From: Hexactinellida sp. DTS-2022
Taxonomy: Eukaryota > Porifera > Hexactinellida
NCBI GenBank assembly: GCA_028753945.1
Contig: JAPNXP010000005.1
Span: forward strand, 930,001 to 994,000
Reading direction: 5' to 3'
DNA: 64,000 bases
This document shows, piece after piece, positions 2,650 to 51,469 of the stretch. Within the stretch, counting starts at the first letter, position 1, and each line of letters begins with the position of its first letter. A program made the position numbers and the translations under genes. The notes under the pieces were generated by a model that made no database searches, was not told the origin of the DNA, and saw nothing but the letters and a program-made list of their open reading frames with translations.

Positions 2650-5600
2650 CCTTTTGGAATCTTGATGGGAGGAGATGTTTTGATAGTTGAATTTGTGTTT
2701 CGTAATCTTGAAGTTTTTAACTTTTTAGTTTCTGTATTGGAATCCGTTGAGCTCACTATAATATTCATAGATTAATTATAATAGTATGAACTGAACTCTT
2801 AAAATTAATACATTGGAGTTGCGTAATAGCAATTCGCATTTTCCATGAATTTTTCTTGCTAATAGGCGAATATTCTTATTAGAGGAATTGCTAAATACTC
2901 CACTGTAGTTAAGGTTTAAACTTTAAACTACAGCAATATCCGTTAATTCGAACACTCGAGGGAAAAATAATATGCTCGAATTAGCGAATTATCGAATTCT
3001 CGAACGGATATTGTATGGGAGGGGCTCCCAAGGGGAAAATAAATCTGTCAAATTACGGGTATTCGAATTAACGGTTGTTGACTGTATATATAATTTCAGT
3101 TCCGGCAAATCTCGACTTAATAAGTCTAATACTAACTAATCGCATTATCAATACAACACATTAGTACCATGGATAATAGACTACCTCTTCGCTTCCTCTT
3201 CGCGCTCTCCGCGCCCGCGACTCTCCCGCTGGCCACCTTGAGAGGTCTCCCGGACCTGCTGACGGCGATCGGCTGAGTGGAGACTCCTTTCTTGCCCTCC
3301 TCTCTCCTCTTGTCCTGGGCTACAGGTACAGTGGTGCCGGTTATAAGCACATCGTCGGGAACTGCACTTAATGTGCTTATAACCGGCATAAATTATACAG
3401 TGGAGCCTCCCATAACGGACACTCCAAATAGCGGACAACCTCTAAATAACGGACAACCCTCGTGGCACGGATTTATTTATTTAGCATATGTCTAATAGAA
3501 AAACAACCTCTAAATAACGGACAACGGTTCCGGTTCCAAGGTGTCCGTTGTTCAGAGGCTCTACTGTATAGGGTATATGGCAACCGTTTCCCAACATAGT
3601 GTGCTTATATCCGACATCTACTGTATAACGTGTTTACTCGAATACAAGGATATAAACCATAGTAGACTTTTGGAAAATTTTTAATTTAGGAGCGTAGATT
3701 TTACAAAAGTAGATTTTTTGAAAATTTTAATTTAGGAGCGCGAAAATTTGGAATCCTCTCCTATAGTACGGTAACATTAATTTGTGATTTACGAGGAAAT
3801 ACGTTAAACAGCATTAACCCTCGGCTGGCTTGGGGTAAAAGGTATAAATAGAAAAACCCCACTTTCACTTTCACTTTCAATTGAAAGTCAATTAACTTTC
3901 AGTTTCAATTTTACATTCCTAGCCAGACGAGGGTTAAGAGAACACTAGGTAAGGCCGTTAAACGCTACTTGATTTGCTCTTCGAACTAAAATTGAATTTC
4001 AATTTCACTTTCAATTTAATTTCAGTTCCAGTTCGCAGCAATAATTTTAATACAAAAAAGGTCTATCACACATAGGCAACCCCCTTGGAAGCTTCCCTAA
4101 CGTTTGCACTAGCTAATCCCTTACATCACCTGTTATTATTTATCCGATCAAATATGTGTATTGTTAAATCATCAAGTAAATCGTCCCATTCGATAGAAAA
4201 TTATAAATCCCACCCATTATGCTCAGACGGTGAAATTGGCAAAACACTTACTCCCACTCCCATTATTAAAATTAAAATATTAATCACTGGATTTGTATAA
4301 TTTGCTAGTTTGATACTTGTCCTTCCCAACTTGTATTTTATGCTAAAATTAACTCTGTAACAAAAGTACAGTCAACTCCCTTATAACGTATTTCAAGGCG
4401 AAATTCATTACTTTGCTTGTTATAAGCAAATTAAAATCAATTACTTTATCCGTCTGGGGAATAACATAATTTAACCTCCTTATAAACGGGTATTTCCATT
4501 ATCGTAGTAGACTCGTTAATACGAACACCAGGGGACCGTCGTTCCTATAAACTTGAGTCTATTGTGGTTTGTATCGGATTTACTCGAATAATCCCCCCCC
4601 TTAAGGGTTCTAAATAAATGCTTAATGTACCTACATCTAAGTAAGTAATAGAAAAACCGGGGTTATTAAATTATCATACAACACCACATAAGCACTTGAG
4701 GGTAGTTGGTTACAGGTTTTAAATAACGTTAGAGGCCCTTACCCAGTGTTATCTTAACTAACGTTTGACGGCCCTTACCCAGTGTTATCTTAACTAACGT
4801 TTGACGGCCCTTACCCAGTGTTATCTTAACTAACGTTTGACGGCCCTTACCCAGTGTTATCTTAACTAACGTTAGAGGCCCTTACCCAGTGTTATCTTAA
4901 CTAACGTTAGAGGCCCTTACCCAGTGTTATCTTAACTAACGTTTGACGGCCCTTACCCAGTGTTATCTTAACTAACGTTTGACGGCCCTTACCCAGTGTT
5001 ATCTTAACTAACGTTTGACGGCCCTTACCCAGTGTTATCTTAACTAACGTTTGACGGCCCTTACCCAGTGTTATCTTAACTAACGTTTGACGGCCCTTAC
5101 CCAGTGTTATCTTAACTAACGTTAGAGGCCCTTACCCAGTGTTATCTTAACTAACGTTTGACGGCCCTTACCCAGTGTTATCTTAAATAACGTTAGAGGC
5201 CCTTACCCAGTGTTATCTTAACTAACGTTAGAGGCCCTTACCCAGTGTTATCTTAACTAACGTTTGACGGCCCTTACCCAGTGTTATCTTAACTAACGTT
5301 AGAGGCCCTTACCCAGTGTTATCTTAACTAACGTTTGACGGCCCTTACCCAGTGTTATCTTAACTAACGTTTGACGGCCCTTACCTAGTGTTATCTTAAC
5401 TAACGTTAGAGGCCCTTACCTAGTGTTATCTTAACTAACGTTTGACGGCCCTTACCCAGTGTTATCTTAACTAACGTTAGAGGCCCTTACCTAGTGTTCG
5501 TGTTGGCGAGGAGAAGGGAGAAGATTCAAAGGAAGGAATAGATTGCTCCGTGTCTGTGCCCAGAGAGGTGGAGAGGGCGTGTTCGGAATCCAGCGCACTC

Positions 5601-10113: not shown

Positions 10114-11347
10114 CAGTGATGTGCTCCGTTACTCAGTAACGGTAATATACATCTGTTACTTTTAACTAGTTACCGTTATCTATAATCAGTTACTTACCAT
10201 TACATTACCGTAACACAGTAACCGTTACTACTGTAAACCACGACAGAACAGGTTAAGTGTACGCATAAGAATTTGAATGGATTAGTTAAATTAGGAATTA
10301 TGCAAGAATAAGTAGTCACAAATATTAAAACTCAAGGATGTTATGCTACACTGAATGCTGAGTTAATGGTACGCCGAATCAGTAAATATTACACTAAACA
10401 CAATAACGGGAAATTTACCGGGTTAATGGTACGCCGAAGAGGTTAATGGTACACCAAACAGGTTAATGGTACGCCAAACAGGTTAATGGTACACCAAACA
10501 GGTTAATGGTACGCCAAACAGGTTAATGGTACGCCAAACAGGTTAATGGTACACCAAACAGGTTAATGGTACGCCAAACAGGTTAATGGTACGCCAAAGA
10601 GGTTAATGGTACACCAAACAGGTTAATGGTACACCAAACAGGTTAATGGTACACCAAACAGGTTAATGGTACACCAAACAGGTTAATGGTACGCCAAAGA
10701 GGTTAATTGTACGCCGAAAAGGTTAATGGTACGCCAAAGAGGTTAATGGTACACCGAAGAGGTTAATGGTACACCAAACAGGTTAATGGTACGCCAAACA
10801 GGTTAATGGTACGCCAAAGAGGTTAATGGTACACCAAACAGGTTAATGGTACGCCAAACAGGTTAATGGTACGCCGAAGAGGTTAATGGTACACCAAACA
10901 GGTTAATGGTACGCCAAAGAGGTTAATGGTACGCCGAAAAGGTTAATGGTACACCAAACAGGTTAATGGTACACCGAAAAAGTTAATCTGAAGAGGTTAA
11001 TGGTATACCAAACAGGTTAATGGTACACCGAAAAGGTTAATGGTACGCCAAACAGGTTAATGGTACGCAGAATATTTGAATCGATTCTTTAATTAGATTT
11101 TAATTGCTTTGATTTATTCCTAATTGATTTTGTCCTTTGATTTAATTCATTTTACCCTGCGTACCTTTAACCTGTTTGGAAGAGGTTTCCTACGTTAAAC
11201 TTATTCCATTGCCATTACAACGTTATTTTTAATCAGTTACCGTTACATTCAGGTAACGGTAGTACTGATTAAAGGTAAACGGATTAACTTAACAAAAGTA
11301 ACGGTAGCGGAACAAATAAAGTAACGGAGTAACGGAGCACATCACTG
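10114..11347. mobile_element. hAT-like element (inner) with GTATTCAT 8-bp duplication and minisatellite core
   Basis: The ends are CAGTGATGTGCTCCGTTACT and, inverted, CAGTGATGTGCTCCGTTACTC. GTATTCAT flanks both sides (10106-10113 and 11348-11355). Subterminal regions hold many GTAACGGT/ACCGTTAC motifs. The middle is occupied by a 20-bp tandem array. No transposase is present. Confidence 0.85.
10421..11072. repeat. 20-bp minisatellite, about 32 copies
   Basis: The unit is GGTTAATGGTACGCCAAACA, with C/T variation at GTACGCC/GTACACC and AACA/AAGA/GAAA variants. Less regular units extend to about 10365 on the left. It lies wholly inside the inner hAT-like element. No unique spacers separate the units. 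Confidence 0.9.
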
Positions 11348-11838
11348 GTATTCATGAATAGTTGCCCTATCAAATACGAATACTGATATACGGTTGAGTA
11401 ACCGAATACGAATACTGATAATATTTGGTTACGTCAACCGAATATCAGGTTGGCAACCGAATATCAACTATTCGGCAAATAATATTCGGTTCAAGTTCAA
11501 CCAACTATATCAGTATTCGGTTTCAACCTTGACTAAAATCCATAAACAACTATTCTACTCAGGAAAGTAGTATTATTCCGTCTACCTAACCACATATAAT
11601 TCCAATATACAATAAGTTAGAAATATAAGCGAGGGAGGTAATCCTAGTGCAAAATGTGAAACGTCCGTAGCGCGGAACAAACAGCTGTAAATAATAATAC
11701 AATCGAGATAACTCTAACGGGACTAATAGCATGTAATATCTGTAAACAGGGTTTTAGCAAGGCGAGTGCACATAGAAATAATGTTAATTTATTAAGGTAT
11801 AAATTCAGAATATTGTTGGTTAATACACATATATTTAA

Positions 11839-11956
11839 TTTTCTTATTCGACAGTCGAATAACTCTTATTCGACAGTCGAACAACTCTTATTCGACAGTC
11901 GAACAACTCTTATTCGACAGTCGAACAACTCTTATTCGACAGTCGAACAACTCTTT
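11839..11956. repeat. Left terminal repeat array of the KDZ element
   Basis: Five copies of a 22-bp unit, TTATTCGACAGTCGAAYAACTC. Each carries the 13-bp palindrome TTCGACAGTCGAA. The array is cut on its inner side by the hAT MITE insertion. Confidence 0.9.
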
Positions 11957-12120
11957 CAGAGATGGATGATGGGTCTCTGGAATCATAGGCTGGGTAGAAT
12001 TAGGGGTCCCTTTCCCCCTTCAACCAATATAAAATTACGACGAGCAGATTTTATGAGGCCGCCAGAACCCACGGGCACCTAGGCTGCAGCCTACTTAGCC
12101 TATTGGGTGATCCGGCCCTG
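11957..12120. mobile_element. 164-bp hAT MITE inside the KDZ element
   Basis: The ends are CAGAG...CCCTG. AACTCTTT lies on both sides (11949-11956 and 12121-12128), a perfect 8-bp duplication. The right end, GATCCGGCCCTG, resembles the CAGGGCCGCC ends of the element at 55594-56152. It inserted into the left terminal array. Confidence 0.85.
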
Positions 12121-12307
12121 AACTCTTTGTCAACAGTAAATTAACTCATTTTACATTGTCGAATTACTTAATTAATTAACTAATATTCGAACGCGTCCAA
12201 TTAGACTATTCAGTTTATTAATTTAATTAACTAAATCTTGTAATATAATATACAAATTCACTTATGTTCTAGTTAGACAATTTTCAAATATTTTTTATGA
12301 ACAAATT

Positions 12308-13101
12308 ATGAACAAAATTAAAGTTTTATTCAAGAAACCATCTCGAAAGTTGATAGAAAGAGAGGCAAGCGAAACAGACTTCTTTCAGTACTTCCCAGCC
12401 TTACCAGCAAACTACAAGTAAGCTTACTGATTCAATAATATGACATACTCAGTGTTGTCACTGAGAAATTTGATTAATTATATTAATATTCGAAAAATTT
12501 CTCTTTAATTATCATTTTTAATAGGATACCACAGTATGAGAAACTAAAGGAGGACATATGCATACCTACTACTTGTTCCAAAATTTACCCTAAGCACCAA
12601 AGATTTTCTCCTGGATTAATAGTAATGGCGTGTCAACACAACTTCTGTTATGGATTTGAAATTTTAACCACTAGGGAGTCAACAGTACTTATTTATAACA
12701 TGCTCATCAGCAAATTTACAATCCCACCAGCTGTCATTATTTATGACAGCGCTTGTAACTTAAATACAACTTGTATTATAAGGTAACATACTGACTGTTT
12801 TTTTATCCTTTAATCCCAAGGAGACATTTATTTATACTTTCTAATTAGGGACCCTGCATTGTTTCGCAATACAACCTTTCTGGTCGACAGATTTCATAGC
12901 AAAAATCATCGCTACGATCCTATCTTCTCTATGAACACCTGGGCTACACATGAAATGAAGAAAGTAAATTCAGAGATTTGTGAGCAACTATTCTCTACCC
13001 TTCGAAGACTTTCAACACAAATTGCGTATATGCGCATAGAGAATGTATTCTTTACAACGCGTTATTTTTTAGCTAGTTGGAACAAAAATATTAGTATATA
13101 G
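12308..13101 (+). CDS. KDZ-family (HMGXB3-like) transposase domain, three exons
   Basis: The exons are 12308-12417, 12525-12782 and 12849-13101, with matching phase (AA|G, AG|G) and donors AA|GTAAGC and AG|GTAACA. The protein is about 205 aa. Family signatures in order are SPGLIVMACQHNFCYGFEI, the acidic motif VIIYDSACNL, LVDRFHSKNH and NSEICEQLFSTLRR. The YD-x-AC...DRFH..NH...NS..EQ pattern is the conserved core of Kyakuja-Dileera-Zisupton transposases and their domesticated relative HMGXB3. The protein is much shorter than typical KDZ transposases and lacks an obvious Cys-rich N-terminal domain. Either an upstream exon was missed, or DNA binding is supplied by the partner gene 13273-15272. 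It lies just inside the left terminal repeat and ends convergently with that partner. Confidence 0.8.
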
Positions 13102-13272
13102 TATACATCACTTTATGTTTTTGATATTTACCGGCAGAACATCAATTTATTATACCATAATTCGCCCAATAAGCGCCTCATTTGACGAATAACTGGAAAA
13201 AACTTAAAGTTCTAGTCGTACAAAAAAGTATCAAATGATGATAGTTGATAAATAGATACATTAATAATTTAA

Positions 13273-15272
13273 TTAAGGTTTATTCGTGCAAGTTACACAG
13301 CTAAAACTATTGTCAATGGTTGAGCGTTCAGGAAGCCTTACACATTCATTATGGAACCAGCTGTCGCATACATCACATTGAACTGTGTATCGAACTGAAC
13401 TTTCACGTTGATCTACATAAGCATATATCGGTAGATTACATGTGCAAATTAGATCGATAATAATTTGATGTGATTCAGGTAGTTTCCCTGTGCGTACTCC
13501 ACGTGTGGTGTTTATTGGAAATAGAGTTATTTTTTCTTCCTTTATACATTTGAGGCAATGGGACCTCATTTGGTATTGATTCCATGACTGGGTTTCTGGT
13601 TCAACACCAGCAGCTATAGCAGTAGCAACTGCTAGGGCATATAGACCACATTCTGAACTACCCTTTTGTTGCTGTATACTGGGAACTGTTACTATCAGCT
13701 GCTGTGAGTGCTCAGCATACAGGAGTGCCAGTTGTGTATCTAAGTCTCCACTTGTTTTTCTCACGTACAGTGAATCATAAATATATATCCCGCCTTTACC
13801 ATCGTACTTTGAACAGACCCAATGTTGACCACAACTGTGTAACTGAATGCTAGGAATATCTCGTGCAGCTTTTTTGAATCCAAGATTCTAAATATTGGAG
13901 TTAAATTAATAAGGTGATTTTAAGTTTCAATACTCCGAATACAGATTATAATCTGAAGTTTTAAGTATTTATTTATAACTTTAATTTGTAAATGATAGAG
14001 AATTAGATTATACACCTGGGAAAATATAGTATCCTGTAGCCCGCTGATATTAGGAAAACTGCGTTTCAGCAAAGTCTAAAAGAAAGAATGAAATATTGTA
14101 TACGTTGTTAAATTCTAGCTAAATATACAAACAAAGGCTTAAAAAATTTCATAAATAAGAATACTTACACAATAAGCATGGATTGTAACATCTGAGAGCC
14201 ATTTTCCAGCATGAGTAAGTTCACGCACACATATTTCTTTGACAGATTTTCTTAATATATTCGAATTACTACATCTAATATAATGTTTACTGTTACCTTT
14301 TGCTTTAGTTAATAATTTTTCTTCTTCTAGTTTACTTGTATTTTTTACATCGATAGGTCTGGATGGAACTTGGTTTCCCTTAGAAAGTATTACTTCACCA
14401 GTTAAGCCTTCGAAAAATGAGTTATCAGCACTTATATCAGAGACTGAAATAATATCCTCTATCAATTTCTGTCACTCTCGGTTTTTTCCTAATTGGTGTA
14501 AAGGTGAGCGAATGTGATGGATTTGGGCGGACTCTTTTAGGTGTACTCGTATCAGCTGAATTGTTAACTTCTTTGATTATTTTCTTAGGTGTTGAAGATG
14601 CGATAGCAATAGGGATATCATTATGTACCATGTATGAATGTATTATCATAACTATCAAGTCTTTCCTTACATTTGACTTCGAGATACATTCGAATTTTAC
14701 TGTATCAGGCCACCAAACAGGTTTCAAAGATTCTACTCCCCAAAAAGAACGACCACGACCTACAAACATAAAGTTATAAATCTTATAATCTACGTATTTG
14801 TATATCATATAAATTATTGTTACTTTCTTTGTTAAAATTACAAAATTGTACAATAATTGGGTTTCAGATTACCGATTGACTTTTGAGTAGCCCATGATAC
14901 TAGTCTCCTTAGGGTACCTCGAGAGTAACGATTGATATCTTCTTTCATCAAATCACTCATGTGTTCATCAACCATAGGTTTTGACTTTTTCTTTATTTTA
15001 TTAGGTTCCTCTACGTTATTCGTATAAGAATGGGATAAACTTTCCCACACGTCTACTTTCTGAGATATAATTATCTGTTTGAAGGAATCTGGACCGTATA
15101 CAGTTAACATACCATTCCATGTAAATGTCAGTGCTACCACCTCACCAGTAATTTTGTAGAACTGGTCGCATGTGCTTGCCAGGATTTTACGAGCGTTTGC
15201 TTGATTCATCAAGTTCCACAGAAAAATTTGAAATTTGTAGATATTCAAATATTTTATAGATACTAGAGGCAT
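13273..15272 (-). CDS. NRF1-like DNA-binding + Ulp1 (C48) protease + PHD finger protein of the KDZ element
   Basis: Five inferred exons, with phases matching throughout: 14873-15272, 14547-14759, 14169-14443, 14016-14075 and 13273-13887, about 520 aa from the ATG at 15272 (15209 is an alternative). The weakest junction is 14547/14443 (donor ACGA|GTACAC). Residues about 30-190 resemble the NRF1/erect-wing DNA-binding region: RKILASTCDQF, LTVYGPDSFKQII, then GRGRSFWG and KPVWWP. Next comes a Ulp1-type protease: GKWLSDVTIHAYC, FPNISGLQD, catalytic-type HW (QHWVCSKY), an Asp in IYDSLY, and Q...SSECGLYALA with the Cys nucleophile. The C-terminus is a PHD-like zinc finger (CTC, CDVCDSWFHNEC, CVTC). 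The promoter side faces the right terminal repeat. Presumed roles are binding the element ends, cleaving SUMO-like conjugates and reading chromatin; only the domains are visible. Confidence 0.75.
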
Positions 15273-15357
15273 ATATAATACCCCCAGCGAAGTTAACACT
15301 TACAAAAAAATGTTGATAATACTTCTATACATTCAAGTTCAAATTAACTAGTGTACT

Positions 15358-15508
15358 CAACTGTCGAATTAGAGTTGTTCGACTGTCGAATAAGAGTTGT
15401 TCGACTGTCGAATAAGAGTTGTTCGACTGTCGAATAAGAGTTGTTCGACTGTCGAATAAGAGTTGTTCGACTGTCGAATAAGAGTTATTCGACTGTCGAA
15501 TAAGAAAA
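15358..15508. repeat. Right terminal repeat array of the KDZ element
   Basis: Six full copies and one worn copy (15358) of the 22-bp unit GAGTTGTTCGACTGTCGAATAA, each with the palindrome TTCGACTGTCGAA. Orientation is inverted relative to 11839-11956. The outermost unit is GAGTTATTCGACTG, mirroring the outermost left unit. Confidence 0.9.
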
Positions 15509-15707
15509 TTTAATACCTCTAATACAATTAGTGTTAAAACAGTTAAGAAAAGAAATTAACAATTTAATAAATAATAATGTATAAATATAAAATCTATTAT
15601 CCTATGGAGTACAAAGTTATTAAAAATATATAAAAATATATAAAAATATATAAAATAGGAATACACTGAAGAGCTGAGTTAGTTAATAAACTTATTTGAG
15701 ATTACAG

Positions 15708-24930: not shown

Positions 24931-25010
24931 TCCGGATTGTATTAAAGTGATAGGGGAATAGAAACCGCAATTAATATTGGGATATAAACTAACTTTCAAA
25001 TGTTATAATA

Positions 25011-25545
25011 GGTAAACAAGTATGCTGAACACGAATTTCGCGTTGAAAAATTTATAATATTAATATTTGTTGTTGTTGTTTACACAAAATAGGTAAACAA
25101 ATTAATGAAAATTCAAAATCAAGCAAGAAGTTTGCTCTCAACGGGTATTATAGGTAAACAAGTATGCTGAACACGAATTTCGCGTTGAAAAATTTATAAT
25201 ATTAATATTTGTTGTTGTTGTTTACACAAAATAGGTAAACAAATTAATGAAAATTCAAAATCAAGCAAGAAGTTTGCTCTCAACGGGTATTAAAGGTAAA
25301 CAAGTATGCTGAACACGAATTTCGCATTTATAAATTTATAATATGAATATTTGTTGTTGTTGTTGACACAAAATAGGTAAACAAATTAATTAAATTCAAA
25401 ATCAAGCAAGAAGTTCGCTCTCAACGGGTATTATAAGTAAACAAGTGTGCTGAACACGAATTTCGCATTTATAAAATTATAATATGAGTATTTGTTGTTG
25501 TTGTTGTTTACACAAATAGGTAAACAAATTAATGAAAATTCAAAA
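25011..25545. repeat. 142-bp tandem repeat, about 3.8 copies
   Basis: Units start GGTAAACAAGTATGCTGAAC at 25011, 25153 and 25295, and as AGTAAACAAGTGTGCTG at 25436. Each contains TTTGTTGTTGTTGTT and CAAGCAAGAAGTTTGCTC. Inverted single units occur at 50815-51030 and 56740-56930, so the array derives from a dispersed repeat. Confidence 0.85.
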
Positions 25546-25554
25546 TCATAACGT

Positions 25555-51127: not shown

Positions 51128-51144
51128 ATATAGATATAGGTAGG

Positions 51145-51191
<47 letters not shown>

Positions 51192-51233
51192 ATAGAAAGA
51201 TAGATAGATAGAAAGATAGATAGAAAGATAGAT

Positions 51234-51297
<64 letters not shown>

Positions 51298-51306
51298 TGA
51301 TAGATT

Positions 51307-51377
<71 letters not shown>

Positions 51378-51402
51378 TGATAGATAGATAGATAGATAGA
51401 TT

Positions 51403-51469
<67 letters not shown>
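51128..51469. repeat. (GATA)n microsatellite, about 340 bp
   Basis: A near-pure TAGATAGATAGA run with occasional AAGA and TTGA units, right after a family K tail ending AATATAGATATAGG. The 141-aa YLSI-repeat frame is its translation. Confidence 0.95.

What the first reader, a model, noticed from the sequence alone, without database searches (positions are those of the whole stretch)
11839..15508. KDZ transposon encoding an NRF1-like/Ulp1/PHD partner protein
The sequence shows a complete element with a short KDZ transposase domain and, convergent to it, a five-exon protein whose parts read as an NRF1/erect-wing DNA-binding region, a Ulp1 cysteine protease and a PHD finger. NRF1 is known as a conserved single-copy transcription factor; an NRF1-type domain in a transposon would bear on its origin or on domain capture. 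That the partner supplies the DNA binding the short transposase lacks is inference.
Basis: partly seen in the sequence, partly recalled or inferred. Interest (0 to 1): 0.88.

Follow-up and report, generated by a model that had tools for sequence, protein, structure and literature searches.

The report
Transposons carrying an NRF1-type DNA binder
In what looks like a glass-sponge genome, a large family of jumping genes carries a relative of the animal gene regulator NRF1, and in several of its branches the ends are built from NRF1's own binding sequence, so NRF1 and these transposons share a protein domain and, apparently, its target.

Summary
At 11828-15519 lies a KDZ-type DNA transposon whose second, convergent gene encodes an NRF1 DNA-binding region, a Ulp1-like protease and a PHD finger (profile-profile E 1.6e-11). 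Corrections: this copy is internally deleted, its transposase is cut short, and its four-exon partner gene is frameshifted. The pair is general: 75 of 89 KDZ exons have an NRF1-like gene tail-to-tail within 6 kb (random 0.4). New here: the ends are tandem arrays of 21-26 bp units, one palindrome each. In 7 of 21 families it is exactly GCGCATGCGC, the published NRF1 site; 18 of 21 share its CATG core. Of 17 listed GCGCATGCGC arrays on C1, 14 lie beside these genes (random 0.3). NRF1's core-contacting Arg206 is kept in 25 of 25 element proteins. Best reading: a two-protein transposon whose NRF1-like subunit binds the ends. Whether NRF1 came from such a transposon or was captured by one is open. 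Binding was not measured; structure prediction was inconclusive.

The parts
11821..11827 (.). left target-site duplication TAATACA
11828..15519 (.). whole element, 3692 bp, outer ends CATATATTTAATTTTC and GAAAATTTAATACCTC
   Evidence: ends shared with the C9 copy by script and with the C15 copy by eye
11842..11955 (.). left terminal array, 5.2 x 22 bp, palindrome TTCGAC-A-GTCGAA in each unit
12296..12304 (.). junction of the internal deletion (element positions 455/463); the C17 copy has about 2.8 kb here
12308..12417 (+). KDZ transposase, first remaining exon
   Evidence: frame and splice sites read by eye; matches within a longer open frame of the C17 copy
12525..12782 (+). KDZ transposase, exon with VIIYDSACNL (putative second acidic residue)
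   Evidence: splice sites by eye
12849..13101 (+). KDZ transposase, last exon with NSEICEQLFS (putative catalytic Glu)
   Evidence: splice site by eye
13273..13887 (-). partner gene exon 4: Ulp1 core (HW, D, Q, C) and PHD finger
14016..14075 (-). partner gene exon 3 (20 aa)
14169..14759 (-). partner gene exon 2: rest of NRF1-type DNA-binding domain (GRGRSFWGVESLKPVWWP); frame broken by a 2-bp deletion between 14456 and 14457
14873..15209 (-). partner gene exon 1: NRF1-type dimerisation region and helix with the Arg206 equivalent
15360..15505 (.). right terminal array, 6.6 x 22 bp
15520..15526 (.). right target-site duplication TAATACA

Best explanation
A KDZ-superfamily cut-and-paste transposon that encodes two proteins from convergent genes: a KDZ transposase and a partner with an NRF1-type dimerisation and DNA-binding region, a Ulp1-type SUMO protease domain and a PHD finger. 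The NRF1-like dimer binds the palindrome repeated every 21-26 bp in the terminal arrays, marks the element ends for the transposase and, because an array lies just upstream of the partner gene and another on the 5' side of the transposase gene, probably also controls their expression. Ulp1 would act on SUMO-modified proteins at the element, and PHD would dock on histone H3 tails. The window copy is a deleted, partly decayed member. Shown here: domains, gene pairing, arrays, identity of many array sites with the NRF1 site. Inferred: binding, the role in transposition, the roles of Ulp1 and PHD.
For: Domain homology: Pfam, PDB NRF1 8k4l 1.6e-8 and 4e-10 with the family profile, profile-profile 97.3% / 1.6e-11 over 142 columns. 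Pairing: 75 of 89 strong KDZ exons with a convergent NRF1-like gene within 6 kb, random mean 0.39, maximum 3 of 500. Arrays: GCGCATGCGC pairs, 150 forward matches in 112 Mb against 0 and 0 for two same-composition palindromes; 14 of 17 such places on C1 near these genes, random mean 0.30; six C1 elements bracketed at both ends. Arg206, which touches the central bases in NRF1 (PMC10810270, section 17 read), in 25 of 25 element proteins. Transposition: 7-bp duplications in two copies. A full-length relative of the partner in Oopsacas minuta; whether it lies in a KDZ element was not tested.
Against: No binding or transposition was measured. The window family's own palindrome (TTCGAC-A-GTCGAA) is not an NRF1 site, and its protein lacks the Asn242 and Arg244 equivalents. 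About 8 of 29 families (my grouping by eye) show no array in the DNA held, and outside the window element and six C1 elements I saw an array at one side only. 13 of 89 strong KDZ exons had no NRF1-like match within 6 kb, and 1 had another arrangement; of 32 weaker KDZ pieces 11 were convergent, 3 otherwise, 18 alone. Of 130 NRF1-like first-exon matches, 50 had no KDZ evidence within 6 kb. Three of 17 GCGCATGCGC places on C1 have neither gene nearby; one of them (C1:11492501) lies about 4 kb from a Mutator-like match. The covariation of Asn242 with the outer base of the site is not significant (Fisher p 0.11). AlphaFold of the Oopsacas protein is poor and did not recover NRF1.
Confidence: 0.78

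Rival explanations
1. The NRF1-like partner is mainly a transcription regulator of the element's two genes. It binds the arrays as promoter elements and has no direct part in strand transfer.
For: The partner-side array lies just upstream of the partner's first exon (window: array from 15360, exon from 15209; C1: array 14230894-14230947, exon from 14230680), and NRF1 is an activator (PMC10810270, passages and section 17 seen).
Against: Where both ends were seen (window and six C1 elements) the arrays are inverted at the two ends, and in the window they sit just inside the duplication-flanked ends, as transposase-side sites do. The two roles do not exclude each other.
Confidence: 0.25
2. The arrays recruit the host's own NRF1, which would express the element; the encoded NRF1-like protein is a decayed or redundant copy.
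For: Host NRF1, Oopsacas NRF1 and four close unnamed relatives keep Arg206 and Asn242 and have Lys at 244 (6 of 6 rows), the same three residues as the clade L065/L067/L071/L084 with exact GCGCATGCGC.
Against: Element partners are open over full length in four of five further families spliced, and sites vary between families (GCACATGTGC, TCCGCATGCGGA and others) in ways a single host NRF1 would not follow.
Confidence: 0.12
3. The domain was captured from an animal NRF1 gene by one KDZ ancestor, which adopted arrays of NRF1 sites afterwards.
For: KDZ elements of fish, fungi, algae and nematodes are described without such a partner in the passages I saw (PMC12730594, PMC9297572, PMC12062965).
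Against: Element proteins keep a trait of human NRF1 that the glass-sponge-type NRF1 lost (Gly225: 20 of 26 element rows, human; His in 6 of 6 glass-sponge-type rows), so capture from a recent glass-sponge NRF1 is unlikely. An older capture is not excluded.
Confidence: 0.4
4. The NRF1 match is chance or a short WWP motif only.
For: Single exons score near or below the Pfam cut-off in the whole-genome scan.
Against: The spliced protein scores 43.2 bits, and the profile-profile match covers both the dimerisation and the DNA-binding part.
Confidence: 0.02

Closest known systems
NRF1 / erect wing, animal transcription factor (PF10491; PDB 8k4l, 8k3d)
   Same: Dimerisation plus DNA-binding region aligned over 142 columns. 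Pro231 and Trp234 in 26 of 26 rows, Arg206 and Gly218 in 25 of 25 with a residue, Trp224 in 25 of 26. In 7 of 21 families the array site equals NRF1's site.
   Different: Multicopy and transposon-borne, fused to Ulp1 and PHD. Arg244 is kept in no row (Lys in 7 of 26), Asn242 in 14 of 26. The segment around human W258/T259 is absent. The host has its own separate NRF1.
KDZ transposons (Kyakuja, Dileera, Zisupton; PF18758)
   Same: Transposase profile above cut-off; terminal inverted repeats; 7- or 8-bp duplications, as reported for Kyakuja (7) and Zisupton (8) in PMC12730594 (passages seen).
   Different: A second, convergent NRF1/Ulp1/PHD gene. Ends made of tandem palindromic arrays. Subgroup not determined.
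Two-protein transposons: En/Spm TNPA+TNPD, PIF/Harbinger Myb-like partner (recalled, no call)
   Same: Works-like: a separate DNA-binding protein recognises repeated terminal or subterminal motifs for the transposase.
   Different: Unrelated transposase superfamilies and DNA-binding domains. No homology was tested.
Ulp1/PHD proteins without an NRF1 part (P0002; P0003 is a shorter near-copy of its C-terminal part)
   Same: Ulp1-like and PHD tail aligns with the partner.
   Different: P0002 has no NRF1 match (P0003 was not scanned).

Membership tests
NRF1 DNA-binding domain family (PF10491) | Profile score above the curated cut-off | tested here: met
   Window 43.2 bits against 23.5. Of 5 further families, 4 above and 1 below (18.0). 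Oopsacas P0001 23.0, just below.
NRF1 DNA-binding domain family (PF10491) | Homology over both dimerisation and DNA-binding parts | tested here: met
   hhalign 142 columns, E 1.6e-11.
NRF1 DNA-binding domain family (PF10491) | Base-contacting Arg206 | tested here: met
   25 of 25 rows with a residue there; 1 of 26 has a gap.
NRF1 DNA-binding domain family (PF10491) | Base-contacting Asn242 and Arg244 | tested here: not met
   Window has Cys and Ser. Over 26 rows Asn242 is kept in 14; Arg244 in none, Lys in 7.
NRF1 DNA-binding domain family (PF10491) | NRF1 fold | tested here: inconclusive
   P0001 model pLDDT 40.8; top matches were PHD fingers.
NRF1 orthologue (host transcription factor) | The host's own NRF1 gene | tested here: not met
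   Host NRF1 is elsewhere (C1:12370499-12371152, 176.5 bits); element rows split from all 10 NRF1 rows at 100/100.
KDZ transposon | KDZ transposase profile | tested here: met
   6.9e-11, 42.7 bits against 26.6.
KDZ transposon | Terminal inverted repeats and 7-8 bp duplications | tested here: met
   TAATACA and ATATATG, 7 bp, by script (which did not find the C15 ends in the orientation I gave it); ACTTAGTT, 8 bp, by eye in the C15 copy.
KDZ transposon | Complete catalytic core in this copy | tested here: not met
   Only profile positions 76-217 match, and the upstream part of the transposase is deleted relative to the C17 copy. Longer transposases of other copies also match from 76 only, so the place of the first acidic residue is inferred.
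Ulp1 (C48) protease | Catalytic His, Asp, Gln, Cys | tested here: met
   Invariant H316, D333, Q367 and C375 in alignment A1, six sequences; residue roles recalled. Pfam score below cut-off for the window (20.4), L065 (13.8) and L066 (19.6), absent for L062, above for L061 (22.1) and L063 (24.1).
PHD finger | Zinc-finger profile | tested here: met
   29.3 bits against 24; H3K4-reader PHDs are among the nearest structures.

The most novel reading that the evidence does not exclude
NRF1, a regulator of genes for mitochondrial biogenesis and much else in animals, was domesticated early in animal evolution from the end-binding protein of a KDZ transposon and kept that protein's target: the palindrome GCGCATGCGC that NRF1 binds in promoters today began as the transposon's terminal repeat.
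Probability: 0.4. Interest if true: 0.96.

Novelty: new variant of a known kind. Interest (0 to 1): 0.86.

Why it matters
NRF1 has a DNA-binding mode that its structure paper calls novel (PMC10810270, passages seen), and my searches listed no account of its origin. A large transposon family carrying the same domain, with NRF1's own site repeated at the ends of several branches, links a basic animal transcription factor to mobile DNA through both protein and binding site. It gives a direct test of domestication against capture, a natural series of NRF1 relatives with different sites for working out recognition, and a new two-protein layout for KDZ transposons.

Tried and rejected
Organism: I first took the assembly (112 Mb, 18 contigs) for Xenoturbella bocki because its size and scaffold number match (PMC11521371, abstract). 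The host NRF1 speaks against this: the closest named match is Oopsacas minuta, 66% (four more close matches are unnamed), so a glass sponge is likely; the species is not identified.

Five-exon gene: my first 499-aa model used a guessed intron 2. Comparison with other copies and L061 points to a 2-bp deletion instead. The NRF1 part of that model lies upstream of the break.

Structure: AlphaFold2 of P0001 with four rows gave pLDDT 40.8; Foldseek and VIA-align gave PHD fingers at the top, no hit at E 0.001, and no NRF1 in the rows shown. Inconclusive. The second prediction job was not used, because only NRF1 rows could have deepened the alignment and that would be circular.

Covariation of NRF1 Asn242 with the outer base of the site: Fisher p 0.11; only 1-2 independent pairs; not significant. 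The Tyr244 / CACATGTG link rests on one sister pair.

Viral contigs: no relative with A1. The first protein search (residues 1-180) had no hit among 256 candidates. A Mutator-like gene lies near the partner-only copy in L087; over the genome 3 of 51 Mutator-like places lie within 8 kb of an NRF1-like match, not all in the same order: taken as coincidence.

Papers: among the papers listed none appeared to link NRF1 with KDZ/Zisupton. One listed paper holds both words (PMC8111743, on glioma; not opened), and one search listed 12 of 66. Subscription papers are mostly not held. Seen: PMC10810270 (passages, section 17), PMC12730594, PMC12062965 and PMC9297572 (passages), PMC11521371 (abstract), others listing only.
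Full report
OBSERVATION. The window carries, at 11828-15519, an element with outer ends CATATATTTAATTTTC / GAAAATTTAATACCTC, terminal arrays of 22-bp units (11842-11955, 5.2 copies; 15360-15505, 6.6 copies) and a 7-bp duplication TAATACA on both sides. On + it has a KDZ transposase remnant (PF18758, 6.9e-11, profile positions 76-217 of 217); on -, convergent, a gene whose spliced product matches NRF1 (PF10491 4.9e-11, 43.2 bits), PHD (8.9e-7) and Ulp1 (5e-4, just under the cut-off). phmmer against the PDB finds human NRF1 8k4l first (1.6e-8), with GRGRSFWGVESLKPVWWPD opposite GRGKPGWGKESCKPIWWPE.

THIS COPY IS DAMAGED. Two further near-identical full copies lie on C9 and C15 (99.6 and 99.2%), and a 97-98% copy on C17. 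The C17 copy has about 2.8 kb more at element position 455/463, with the rest of the transposase, including the motif IIILDGIAMG, which I take for the first catalytic Asp by its position (inference). The window, C9 and C15 copies therefore look like descendants of an internal deletion. They also lack 2 bp in exon 2 of the partner that the C17 copy and a C15 fragment (L006) have; the C17 copy has a different frame break in the same exon. Five other families show the partner gene with four exons, GT-AG, phases 0/1/0/0. Four are open over full length; one (L066) has an in-frame stop. The C15 copy has its two outer ends swapped relative to the genes (by eye).

THE PAIR IS GENERAL. PF10491 over the whole genome gives 76 matches at E up to 10: one host NRF1 (C1:12370499, 176.5 bits) and weak exon-level matches elsewhere, 25.7 bits or less. 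With KDZ by profile, 31 of 40 matches have an NRF1-like match downstream, these 31 tail to tail. With a more sensitive exon search, 75 of 89 KDZ exons of 86 bits or more have a convergent NRF1-like gene within 6 kb (median 1.8 kb); 1 has another arrangement and 13 none; random placement gives a mean of 0.39, maximum 3 of 500 (lengths of C3 and C8 were assumed to be 5 Mb). Among the 32 weaker KDZ pieces, 11 are convergent, 3 otherwise and 18 alone. Of 130 NRF1-like first-exon matches, 50 have no KDZ evidence within 6 kb.

HOMOLOGY WITH NRF1. Six families aligned (A1) match NRF1 in the PDB at 4e-10, a PHF2 PHD at 5e-10 and a Ulp1-like SUMO protease at 4e-4. An element-only profile (11 rows) against an NRF1-only profile (8 rows) gives probability 97.3, E 1.6e-11, over 142 columns, dimerisation part included. 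A search of 5.8 billion proteins with A1 finds three proteins: a 493-aa Oopsacas minuta protein (E 1e-148, 98% covered) and two Ulp1/PHD-type proteins, of which the longer was scanned and has no NRF1 match. Host NRF1 is 66% identical to Oopsacas NRF1, so the host is most likely a glass sponge.

THE ENDS. Tandem Repeats Finder and a palindrome script over the loci held show arrays of 21-26 bp period with one palindrome per unit beside the NRF1-like genes; mononucleotide shuffles give 0.03 palindrome arrays per locus. Both ends were seen for the window element and six C1 elements; elsewhere one side only. Grouping loci into families by eye from the linker sequence, I count about 29 families; 21 have an array in the DNA held (not in every member locus). 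Seven have exactly GCGCATGCGC (L065, L067, L071/L081, L084, L068, L042/L064, and L069). Four have one such half-site (L078, L070/L072, L080, L073). The others are GAGCATGCTC (L047), GTGCATGCAC (L041), GCACATGTGC (L063), ACACATGTGC (L066), TTCGCATGCGAA (L061), (T)TCGCATGCGA (L050/L082), TCCGCATGCGGA (L053-L057, L062, L076), GGCGCTAGCGCC (L032/L037 and L051) and TTCGAC-A-GTCGAA (window). The CATG core is present in 18 of 21. GCGCATGCGC is the site on which human NRF1 was crystallised (PMC10810270). About 8 families show no array in the DNA held (L033-L035/L058, L036, L044/L052, L049, L059, L060, L074/L079, L075).

GENOME-WIDE CONTROL. Two GCGCATGCGC 8-20 bp apart: 150 forward matches; the reversed pattern 0. 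Same-composition palindromes CGGCATGCCG and CGCGATCGCG: 0 and 0; the reversed form of the latter, GCGCTAGCGC, gives 49, and this is the unit of families L032/L037 and L051. Only the first 100 rows were listed, all on C1. Merged, they form 17 places, many of them the two ends of one element; 14 lie within 6.5 kb of a KDZ or NRF1-like exon, random mean 0.30, maximum 3 of 2000 (with 96 of 130 first-exon rows). The three without are C1:3942018, 11492501 and 11521952; the second lies about 4 kb from a Mutator-like match. Six C1 elements are bracketed at both ends with the unit inverted, for example C1:1927548-1927626 and 1933633-1933964 around exons at 1927883 (+) and 1930016 (-).

HOW IT FITS NRF1 RECOGNITION. 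In NRF1, Arg206 contacts the central bases, and Asn242 and Arg244 the outer ones. Arg206 is kept in 25 of 25 element rows with a residue there. Asn242 is kept in 14 of 26. Arg244 is kept in none, Lys in 7; the six glass-sponge-type NRF1 rows have Asn and Lys. So the invariant contact goes with the nearly invariant CATG core, and the variable contacts with the variable flanks. The second half is a pattern, not a proof: Fisher p 0.11 for Asn242 against the outer G, and too few independent changes.

MECHANISM. Shown: two convergent genes, terminal arrays, NRF1-type site in many arrays, duplications. Inferred: the NRF1-like dimer loads along the array (22 bp is about two helical turns, so dimers would sit on one face), gathers both ends, and hands them to the KDZ enzyme; the same binding controls the genes; Ulp1 trims SUMO and PHD anchors to histone H3.

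ORIGIN. The tree places 10 NRF1 rows (human, three unnamed human-like, six glass-sponge-type) and 26 element rows on two sides of one branch, 100/100 (which also warns that long branches meet). With three groups and no outgroup this cannot say which came first. Element proteins keep Gly225, which human NRF1 has and the six glass-sponge-type rows lack (20 of 26 element rows), so recent capture from the sponge's own NRF1 is unlikely. Ancient capture and domestication are both open.

NOVELTY. KDZ elements, NRF1, and Ulp1/PHD tails are each known. The combination, and ends built of NRF1 sites, I found in no paper listed.

Noticed in passing
window 10114-11347: A separate small inverted-repeat element (27-nt arms, 93% complementary) enclosing a 20-bp tandem array of about 33 copies (10421-11068).
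   Followed up: no
L087 (C17:3341600-3348200): An NRF1-like/Ulp1/PHD gene with no KDZ gene in 6.6 kb; five other first exons with nearly the same score (C1:1383532, C11:14133909, C11:13621356, C4:4635551, C1:15655719) also lack KDZ within 6 kb. Downstream lies a 22-bp array whose unit holds ACATGT; possibly a partner-only derivative.
   Followed up: partly
L053 (C12:6030865-6034089): An array grown to 40 copies of the 21-bp TCCGCATGCGGA unit, against 2-5 in sister copies: the arrays expand and contract.
   Followed up: no
own genome: 49 places with two GCGCTAGCGC 8-20 bp apart turned up as a control column; they match the unit of families L032/L037 and L051. Their places were not listed.
   Followed up: no
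L003 (C15 copy): The two outer ends are swapped relative to the genes, as if the interior had inverted between the arrays; duplication ACTTAGTT is 8 bp, not 7 (by eye).
   Followed up: partly
P0002: A Ulp1-like/PHD protein without an NRF1 part; its N-terminal half has a CxCx(n)CRH stretch that looks like a SWIM finger (recalled), so the Ulp1/PHD tail may be shared among transposons.
   Followed up: no
partner exon 1, families of alignment A1: The dimerisation part has a pattern (TGExVG..FTWxGxLxxxG) that recalls MADS domains (recalled); the NRF1 structure paper names SRF as the closest structural homologue.
   Followed up: no
window 4719-5498, 25004-25548 and 51136-51469: Other long tandem arrays (36 bp x 22, 142 bp x 3.8, ATAG x 83) outside this element.
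   Followed up: no
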